DNA of 64,000 nucleotides from Candidatus Woesearchaeota archaeon. Lineage in GTDB: Archaea; Nanobdellota; Nanobdellia; Woesearchaeales; UBA9642. The translations under genes and the position numbers were made by a program. This document shows positions 2,508 to 18,605 of this stretch, piece by piece. The notes below the pieces were generated by a model that saw nothing but the letters and a program-made list of their open reading frames with translations, was not told where the DNA came from and searched no databases. The stretch spans positions 253,961-317,960 of the forward strand of contig QZIT01000005.1 in assembly GCA_003599145.1 (NCBI GenBank), written 5' to 3'. Numbering within the stretch: the first letter of the stretch is position 1; each line of letters begins with the position of its first letter.

Positions 2508-2619
2508 CGGGCCGGACGAGATTTTCAGTGTACTTTCGAACTCGCGACCACTGCATGTCTTCTTTGGTTTAAAAGTGCAGTGCTCTATTGCCCGAAACTC
2601 CAGGCTGAGCTACCGGCCC
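2508..2619 (-). tRNA. tRNA-Lys (TTT) with three introns
   Basis: Cloverleaf: acceptor GGGCCGG/CCGGCCC, anticodon stem CTGCA/TGCAG, anticodon TTT, T-stem GCGAG/CTCGT, discriminator G. Three insertions must be removed: 12 nt in the D-loop (2588-2599), 13 nt at 37/38 (2557-2569) and 13 nt in the T-loop at 59/60 (2522-2534). Each is bounded by a 4-bp central helix and two 3-nt bulges: GCCT/GGGC with GGA and AAT; CTTT/GAAG with TAA and ACA; TTCG/TGAA with AAA and AAT. Cutting after the second bulge base gives a canonical 74-nt tRNA. The rpoH ATG starts 11 nt downstream. Confidence 0.93.
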
Positions 2620-2627
2620 GTGTTGAA

Positions 2628-2754
2628 CGCCCTGGCCGGGATTTTCACTGCGTCAAGGAGGTTACCTTGACCCTGGCTTTTGAACCCGGGTCGAAGCCTT
2701 TATGCGATTTTCATCACGACAGGGCTTCATGATAGGCCACTACACTACCAGGGC
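2628..2754 (-). tRNA. tRNA-Asp (GTC) with two introns
   Basis: Acceptor GCCCTGG/CCAGGGC, anticodon stem AAGCC/GGCTT, anticodon GTC, T-stem CCGGG/CCCGG, discriminator G. There is a 17-nt intron at 37/38 (2700-2716) and a 37-nt intron in the T-loop at 59/60 (2642-2678). The T-loop intron has central helix TTCA/TGAA, bulges AAA and AAT, and an internal 7-bp hairpin GTCAAGG/CCTTGAC. Removing both leaves a regular 73-nt tRNA. It lies 8 nt upstream of tRNA-Lys on the same strand, so the two and rpoH are probably cotranscribed. Confidence 0.93.
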
Positions 2755-3356: not shown

Positions 3357-3479
3357 TCCCCGCTGCCGGACTTGAACCGGCAACCTTTCGGTATCAGCTG
3401 ATAACGCTTCATTAACAGCAATTATGCTTATTCTGCGCTATGTCTACAGCCGAACGCTCTACCATTGAGCTAAGCGGGG
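3357..3479 (-). tRNA. tRNA-Tyr (GTA) with one intron
   Basis: It starts at C1 (CCCCGCT pairing with AGCGGGG), the C1-G72 pair typical of archaeal and eukaryotic tRNA-Tyr, with discriminator A. Anticodon stem TTCGG/CCGAA, anticodon GTA, T-stem GCCGG/CCGGC. A 51-nt intron (3393-3443) sits at 37/38; its central helix CTGT/GCTG has a T-T mismatch. The mature tRNA is 72 nt. Confidence 0.93.
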
Positions 3480-14487: not shown

Positions 14488-14632
14488 TAGCCCCGGGCGG
14501 ATTTTCGTGGATTTCTTAGGGGACTTCCGAAGGAATGTCGCCTGCATTTAGCGAGATTTTGGCTAAAATCTCATTCGAACCGCCGTCTACGCATCCAAAG
14601 TGCGCAATGATTGGCCGCTACACTACGGGGCT
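14488..14632 (-). tRNA. tRNA-Gln (TTG) with a 72-nt T-loop intron
   Basis: Acceptor AGCCCCG/CGGGGCT, discriminator A, anticodon stem GCGCA/TGCGT with loop CTTTGGA (anticodon TTG, no intron there), T-stem GGCGG/CCGCC. The T-loop is interrupted at 59/60 by 14502-14573. Central helix TTCG/CGAA, both bulges AAT. Inside are an 8-bp hairpin GAGATTTT/AAAATCTC and a second stem around TTCC/GGAA. Removal gives a 73-nt tRNA with loop TTCGAAT. Confidence 0.92.
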
Positions 14633-18520: not shown

Positions 18521-18605
18521 AGCGGGGAGAGGGATTTGAACCCCCGCATGACCGCTTTCAACAAAACTACTGCAGGCGGTTGCCTTACCGCTTGGCTATC
18601 CCCGC
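18521..18605 (-). tRNA. tRNA-Cys (GCA) with a 13-nt intron
   Basis: Acceptor GCGGGGA/TCCCCGC, discriminator T as expected for tRNA-Cys, anticodon stem ACCGC/GCGGT, anticodon GCA, T-stem GGGGG/CCCTC. A 13-nt intron at 37/38 (18557-18569) has central helix CTGC/GTTG with one T-T mismatch. The mature tRNA is 72 nt. It has the same short-intron style as tRNA-Lys. Confidence 0.92.

What the first reader, a model, noticed from the sequence alone, without database searches (positions are those of the whole stretch)
2508..2619. tRNA-Lys carries three mini-introns, one each in the D-loop, anticodon loop and T-loop
The 112-nt gene becomes a canonical 74-nt tRNA only if 12, 13 and 13 nt are removed. All three insertions fit the same bulge-helix-bulge geometry: a 4-bp central helix, two 3-nt bulges cut after the second base, and only 5-6 nt of inner loop. 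Multiple-intron tRNAs are known from Thermoproteales; three such minimal introns in one tRNA of a DPANN-like genome would be remarkable. Introns this small test the lower limit of what a splicing endonuclease can recognise.
Basis: partly seen in the sequence, partly recalled or inferred. Interest (0 to 1): 0.85.

Follow-up and report, generated by a model that had tools for sequence, protein, structure and literature searches.

The report
Three-intron lysine tRNA in Woesearchaeota
A lysine transfer-RNA gene of a tiny uncultured archaeon is interrupted three times by very short introns that must be cut out and rejoined; the same three-site pattern recurs in its other tRNAs and across its relatives, which appear to have only one gene for the cutting enzyme.

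Summary
On the minus strand at 2508-2619, removing 12, 13 and 13 nt gives an exact 74-nt tRNA-Lys(TTT). Each insertion has the archaeal splice geometry (4-bp helix between loop exon and intron, 3-nt bulge, cut after the second base). It is the only TTT copy found; the separate tRNA-Lys(CTT) is intronless. Of 70 orthologues at the same rpoH-linked locus in Woesearchaeota and close kin, 6 have no intron, 34 one, 20 two and 10 three. Across 104 introns the central helix is perfect in 91, and the exact register is lost when the 3' arm is slid. On an rpoB tree the D-loop and T-loop introns need at least 19 and 21 changes. The genome has three more three-intron tRNAs (Pro 12/13/13, Ile 17/18/14, Glu 86/35/22) and at least 41 introns in 40 tRNA genes. 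Size and positions are not records: 11-129 nt and sites 20/21, 37/38 and 59/60 are published. The surprise is the enzyme. This genome and nearly all of 112 in its class show one EndA gene and no beta subunit, a type reported as unable to process relaxed motifs efficiently, yet it carries the Arg-Trp pair of broad-specificity enzymes. Splicing itself is inferred; no RNA data were available.

The parts
2508..2619 (-). tRNA-Lys(TTT) gene with three introns (74 nt mature)
   Evidence: intron-aware model 70.4 bits, gene in training set
2600..2619 (-). exon 1 (acceptor 5' strand, D-stem 5' strand, D-loop to G19)
   Evidence: identical to intronless relative L075
2588..2599 (-). intron 1, D-loop (about 19/20), 12 nt AGTTTCGGGCAA; helix GCCT/GGGC
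2570..2587 (-). exon 2 (end of D-arm, anticodon stem 5' strand, loop 32-37 with anticodon TTT)
2557..2569 (-). intron 2, anticodon loop 37/38, 13 nt AACCAAAGAAGAC; helix CTTT/GAAG (an equal-product shift by one base is possible)
2535..2556 (-). exon 3 (nt 38, anticodon stem 3' strand, variable loop, T-stem 5' strand, T-loop to A59)
2522..2534 (-). intron 3, T-loop 59/60, 13 nt AGTACACTGAAAA; helix TTCG/TGAA
2508..2521 (-). exon 4 (U60, T-stem 3' strand, acceptor 3' strand, discriminator G)
2628..2754 (-). adjacent tRNA-Asp(GTC) with two introns (17 nt anticodon, 37 nt T-loop), missed by ARAGORN and by Rfam at its gathering score
   Evidence: intron-aware model 42.0 bits
2215..2496 (-). rpoH, starting at the ATG 11 nt downstream of tRNA-Lys, followed by rpoB'' (733-2214); the anchor used to find orthologous tRNA-Lys genes. 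Gene names assigned from sequence by inspection

Best explanation
The gene is a functional, essential tRNA-Lys(UUU) whose precursor carries one short intron in each of its three hairpin loops. In each arm the tRNA's own stem is the outer helix, four loop nucleotides pair with four intron nucleotides to form the central helix, and the 3' splice site lies in the 3-nt bulge between them (in the D-arm a 1x4 internal loop). EndA cuts after the second bulge base at both ends of each intron and RtcB joins the exons (both inferred from homology). The enzyme is most likely a single-gene alpha-type EndA that assembles with itself: it keeps an N-terminal domain and an acidic L10-like loop, and it has the Arg-Trp base-clamp pair found in broad-specificity enzymes. 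Shown here: anatomy, conservation, recurrence, gene content. Inferred: splicing, order of cuts, oligomeric state of EndA. The confidence given is for the introns being spliced by EndA; for the self-assembling single-gene EndA alone it is about 0.6.
For: Exact canonical product. Only copy found: BLAST with the spliced exons finds this locus and otherwise weaker partial tRNA matches; tRNA-Lys(CTT) is separate and intronless. Orthologues with 0-3 introns at the same sites around near-identical exons. Register-specific central helix against slid and shuffled controls. At least 19 (D) and 21 (T) state changes on an rpoB tree for 22 and 27 occurrences, as expected of removable units. Same three-site pattern in Pro(TGG), Ile(TAT) and Glu(CTC) of the same genome. 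One EndA with its conserved Tyr, His and Lys and one RtcB. EndA R197 and W224 align with ARMAN-2 R275 and W384 (PMC12397907); its DAEGD loop aligns with the M. jannaschii DADGD loop and with N. equitans beta (SEGD), while N. equitans alpha lacks it.
Against: No RNA evidence. The T-loop central helix is weak in silico (pair probability 0.11-0.17; contribution -0.7 kcal/mol), and the D-loop can also fold as a 6-bp hairpin that pairs the 5' splice-site bases. Single-gene alpha4 and alpha'2 EndAs are described as unable to remove relaxed-motif introns efficiently (PMC6379350), so the enzyme part goes against current expectation.
Confidence: 0.9

Rival explanations
1. The introns are real, but EndA is heteromeric: a strongly diverged structural (beta) subunit or an unrelated partner, perhaps the conserved gene directly downstream of endA, gives the broad specificity.
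For: Broad specificity is so far tied to (alpha-beta)2 and epsilon2 enzymes (PMC6379350). A gene of about 300 aa (winged helix plus nuclease-like domain) was recognised in most of the 31 Woesearchaeal endA loci examined and lies next to endA in nearly all of these. Very reduced beta subunits exist (96 aa in Pyrobaculum aerophilum).
Against: Profile searches find only one EndA in the genome, apart from a weak Pfam match (E = 0.13) with stops in frame. The same Pfam search does find an adjacent second copy in four genomes of one family of the class (f21), as in N. equitans, so an ordinary beta would be seen. The neighbour's fold matches restriction-endonuclease and winged-helix proteins, not EndA. 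The single EndA carries both the acidic loop and the Trp that N. equitans divides between its two subunits.
Confidence: 0.3
2. The gene is a decaying or non-functional copy, or the insertions stay in the mature RNA.
For: Standard tRNA finders miss it.
Against: It is the only TTT isoacceptor found; exons are free of damage and all stems pair; the insertions obey a strict splice grammar; three other isoacceptors in the genome have the same architecture.
Confidence: 0.03
3. The D-loop intron uses another register, for example removal of GCCTGGAGTTTC leaving AGGGCAATA in the D-loop.
For: The generic solver scores both products equally.
Against: The chosen register leaves the D-loop AGCCTGGTA found in intronless orthologues such as L075; 21/22 D-introns fit it and none fits a slid register.
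Confidence: 0.04

Closest known systems
Multiple-intron tRNAs of Thermoproteales (e.g. Pyrobaculum islandicum tRNA-Pro(UGG), introns at 25/26, 37/38 and 56/57; PMC4090602)
   Same: Up to three bulge-helix-bulge-type introns in one tRNA, at one canonical and two non-canonical sites; relaxed motifs occur.
   Different: Here DPANN archaea; sites are one per hairpin loop (about 19/20, 37/38, 59/60); all three minimal (38 nt together); Thermoproteales are crenarchaea, in which the heteromeric (alpha-beta)2 EndA is usual, while only a single EndA gene is seen here.
Nanoarchaeum equitans non-canonical and split tRNAs with (alpha-beta)2 EndA (3IEY)
   Same: Closest solved catalytic subunit; Arg and Trp recognition residues.
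   Different: No beta gene found here; the single Woesearchaeal EndA keeps an N-terminal domain and the acidic loop that the N. equitans catalytic subunit lacks; trans-splicing was not tested.
ARMAN-1/2 multi-intron tRNAs with epsilon2 EndA (4FZ2)
   Same: Ultrasmall archaea with multiple-intron tRNAs and the R275/W384 clamp.
   Different: No three-unit fused EndA here; whether a loop comparable to the ARMAN-specific loop exists was not settled.
Methanocaldococcus jannaschii alpha4 EndA (1A79)
   Same: Single alpha gene, acidic loop DADGD aligned with DAEGD.
   Different: Reported narrow specificity; Tyr where Woesearchaeal EndA has an invariant Trp.

Membership tests
archaeal BHB-type tRNA intron | removal restores a canonical tRNA | tested here: met
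archaeal BHB-type tRNA intron | 4-bp central helix with cuts after the second base of 3-nt bulges | tested here: met
   4/4 pairs in all three; register test in orthologues
archaeal BHB-type tRNA intron | strict form with inner intron helix (hBHBh') | tested here: not met
   inner loops of only 5-6 nt; relaxed hBH / bulge-helix-loop form
archaeal BHB-type tRNA intron | excision seen in RNA | not testable with these tools
   no transcript data
multiple-intron tRNA | two or more introns in one gene | tested here: met
(alpha-beta)2 EndA | separate structural beta subunit gene | tested here: not met
   one EndA gene only; positive control in family f21; extreme divergence not excluded
(alpha-beta)2 EndA | Arg+Trp base clamp | tested here: met
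   R197, W224 invariant, aligned to ARMAN-2 R275/W384
crenarchaeal EndA | Crenarchaea-specific loop with Lys | tested here: inconclusive
   A. pernix alpha is 9 residues longer over the aligned N-domain, suggesting absence; no structure-based check
epsilon2 EndA | three fused units (about 390 aa) | tested here: not met
   227 aa, single catalytic domain
alpha4 EndA | single gene, N- and C-domains, acidic L10 loop | tested here: met
   PF02778+PF01974; D212/E214/D216 invariant; that this loop is L10 is inferred from the M. jannaschii alignment
alpha4 EndA | homotetramer | not testable with these tools
   needs biochemistry

The most novel reading that the evidence does not exclude
Woesearchaeota splice introns from all three tRNA hairpin loops with a single-gene, self-assembling alpha-type EndA that has broad specificity without a beta subunit or a known specificity loop. 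This would break the rule that broad specificity needs an (alpha-beta)2 or epsilon2 enzyme, and would resemble a state from which the N. equitans alpha and beta subunits could have split.
Probability: 0.45. Interest if true: 0.75.

Novelty: new member of a known kind. Interest (0 to 1): 0.6.

Why it matters
It documents an archaeal group, beyond the crenarchaea, Nanoarchaeum and ARMAN listed in reviews, in which multi-intron tRNAs are widespread, with about one intron per tRNA gene in this genome against the published Thermoproteales average of 0.84. Rfam at its gathering cut-off finds 23 of the 40 tRNA genes, so tRNA counts and completeness scores for such genomes may be too low. It sets up a direct test of how EndA specificity and intron spread co-evolve, because intron-rich and intronless orthologues sit at the same conserved locus.

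Tried and rejected
ARAGORN and Rfam miss the gene. The downstream endA neighbour was modelled and compared with PDB in the hope of finding a hidden EndA beta; the matches are MspJI-type and winged-helix proteins, so it is not filed as a subunit. The AlphaFold model of EndA was poor (mean pLDDT 65.9) and was not used. My first alignment template for tRNA-Lys was one base too long and misplaced some anticodon introns; it was corrected. Two of the 72 extracted orthologues were incomplete and left out (L047, L071). The long-intron repeat was checked against Rfam (no match).

Full report
WHAT IS THERE. The gene lies on the minus strand, 2508-2619, 8 bases downstream of tRNA-Asp and 11 bases upstream of the rpoH start codon. 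Its 112 nt become an exact 74-nt tRNA-Lys(TTT) after removal of 12 nt in the D-loop (2588-2599), 13 nt in the anticodon loop at 37/38 (2557-2569) and 13 nt in the T-loop at 59/60 (2522-2534). ARAGORN and Rfam miss it; a covariance model built with introns, in which this gene was one of 25 training rows, scores it 70.4 bits.

GEOMETRY. In each loop four exon nucleotides pair with four intron nucleotides: GCCT/GGGC, CTTT/GAAG, TTCG/TGAA. The cuts fall after the second base of a 3-nt bulge. Because only 5-6 nt remain inside, there is no inner helix; the tRNA's own stem is the outer helix. These are relaxed bulge-helix-loop (hBH) motifs rather than strict bulge-helix-bulge. Energy calculations favour the anticodon helix (pair probability above 0.8), are balanced for the D-loop (0.54) and weak for the T-loop (0.11-0.17).

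NOT CHANCE. A scan with rpoB'' brought in 80 loci, nearly all labelled Woesearchaeota, Nanoarchaeota or other DPANN or unnamed archaea (one labelled Aminicenantes and one Parcubacteria are presumably mis-binned). At the rpoH-linked position I annotated 70 complete tRNA-Lys(TTT) genes, this one included: 6 without introns, 34 with one, 20 with two, 10 with three. Exons stay nearly constant while introns vary from 12 to 122 nt. The 4-bp helix is perfect at the exact register in 21/22 D, 20/27 T, 39/44 anticodon and 10/10 anticodon-stem introns, and in the single T-stem intron (91 of 104 in all). Shuffled introns would give 0.33, 0.69, 3.1 and 0.07 for the first four classes. Sliding the 3' arm by one to four bases leaves 0/22 and 0/10 in the D and anticodon-stem classes, at most 2/27 in T and at most 6/44 in the A/T-rich anticodon class. 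On an rpoB tree the D and T introns need at least 19 and 21 state changes for 22 and 27 occurrences.

IN THE SAME GENOME. G000 has 1.307 Mb in 6 contigs and is 97.5% complete. Combining Rfam, the intron-aware model and a splice-aware solver, I decoded 40 tRNA genes; 29 carry introns, 41 in all, a lower bound because several isoacceptors are not yet located (the 15-nt intron of tRNA-Leu(CAA), L022, was read by hand). Four genes carry three: Lys(TTT) 12/13/13, Pro(TGG) 12/13/13, Ile(TAT) 17/18/14, Glu(CTC) 86/35/22. All use the D-loop, anticodon loop and T-loop. No second tRNA-Lys(TTT) was found; tRNA-Lys(CTT) is intronless.

THE ENZYMES. One EndA (227 aa; PF02778 + PF01974) and one RtcB. Searches down to E = 10 give no second EndA beyond a weak Pfam match (E = 0.13) with stops in frame. 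Of 40 genomes reached through relatives' loci, 35 have EndA, 34 of them a single match. In 112 genomes of the class 109 have EndA, nearly always single; most other second matches are fragments, several at contig ends, but four genomes of one family (f21) show an adjacent second, weaker copy, which also shows that a beta subunit of the N. equitans type would be detected. The Woesearchaeal protein aligns best with N. equitans alpha. It combines features that N. equitans divides between two subunits: the acidic loop (DAEGD here; SEGD in N. equitans beta; missing in alpha) and the C-terminal Trp (in alpha, not in beta). R197 and W224 match the ARMAN-2 R275/W384 clamp that sandwiches the bulged base; Arg+Trp is described for broad (alpha-beta)2 and epsilon2 enzymes and two Arg for narrow alpha4 and alpha'2 enzymes, although the same paper notes that the Trp/Arg position is variable (PMC12397907; PMC6379350). 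A. pernix alpha is nine residues longer over the aligned N-domain, consistent with its specificity loop being absent here. My reading is a homomeric enzyme with broad-type recognition. The oligomeric state is inferred.

COMPARISON WITH WHAT IS KNOWN. Three introns per tRNA, the sites 20/21, 37/38 and 59/60, and lengths of 11-129 nt (medians mostly 12-25) are all published (PMC4090602; PMC8450103, with 0.84 introns per tRNA gene in Thermoproteales). Reviews list multi-intron tRNAs in Crenarchaeota, N. equitans, two euryarchaea, Korarchaeum and ARMAN (PMC4033280). I found no description for Woesearchaeota in the open-access library, which does not hold most subscription journals. So the tRNA is a new member of a known kind. 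The possibly new part is the pairing of relaxed-motif introns in all three loops with a single-gene EndA, against the statement that only (alpha-beta)2 and epsilon2 EndAs remove such introns efficiently (PMC6379350). A partial exception is already known: A. fulgidus alpha'2 EndA can remove a bulge-helix-loop intron at 37/38 from full-length pre-tRNA (same source).

LIMITS. No RNA data. A very diverged beta subunit cannot be excluded. Intron boundaries can shift by a base or so where equal products result. The census depends on my own solver, and single-intron calls with 3/4 helices are less certain than the three-intron genes.

Noticed in passing
G000 long tRNA introns: L152 (window about 14488-14632, tRNA-Gln TTG), L161 (Glu TTC), L149 (Met CAT), L024 (Arg CCT), L164 (Glu CTC, D-loop): Five long introns in different tRNAs, four in T-loops and one in a D-loop, share a core like GCAGGSG..(TTCG)..GYCCCYTAA, most with a preceding GAGATTTT..AAAATCTC hairpin. 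No Rfam match; the two exact genome-wide pattern matches are both in tRNA introns, and it was not seen in the relatives' loci. Looks like an intron family that spreads between tRNA genes and sites.
   Followed up: partly
L025:1767-2861 and relatives' endA loci: A conserved gene of about 300 aa directly downstream of endA in most Woesearchaeal loci: winged helix plus MspJI-like nuclease fold, no significant Pfam family; function unknown.
   Followed up: partly
window 18521-18605: ARAGORN's 'tRNA-Ala(tgc)' is better read as tRNA-Cys(GCA) with a 13-nt anticodon intron.
   Followed up: yes
window 3357-3479 and G000:C2:78298-78420: Two tRNA-Tyr(GTA) genes with identical exons and near-identical 51-nt introns in one genome.
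   Followed up: no
L087:3599-3734: One orthologue has an intron at the T-stem/T-loop border (53/54) instead of 59/60; ten others have an anticodon-stem intron near 29/30.
   Followed up: no
L025:1105-1270: EndA of the Woesearchaeota has a variable, often lysine-rich N-terminal tail (about 56 aa here), a candidate RNA-binding extension.
   Followed up: no
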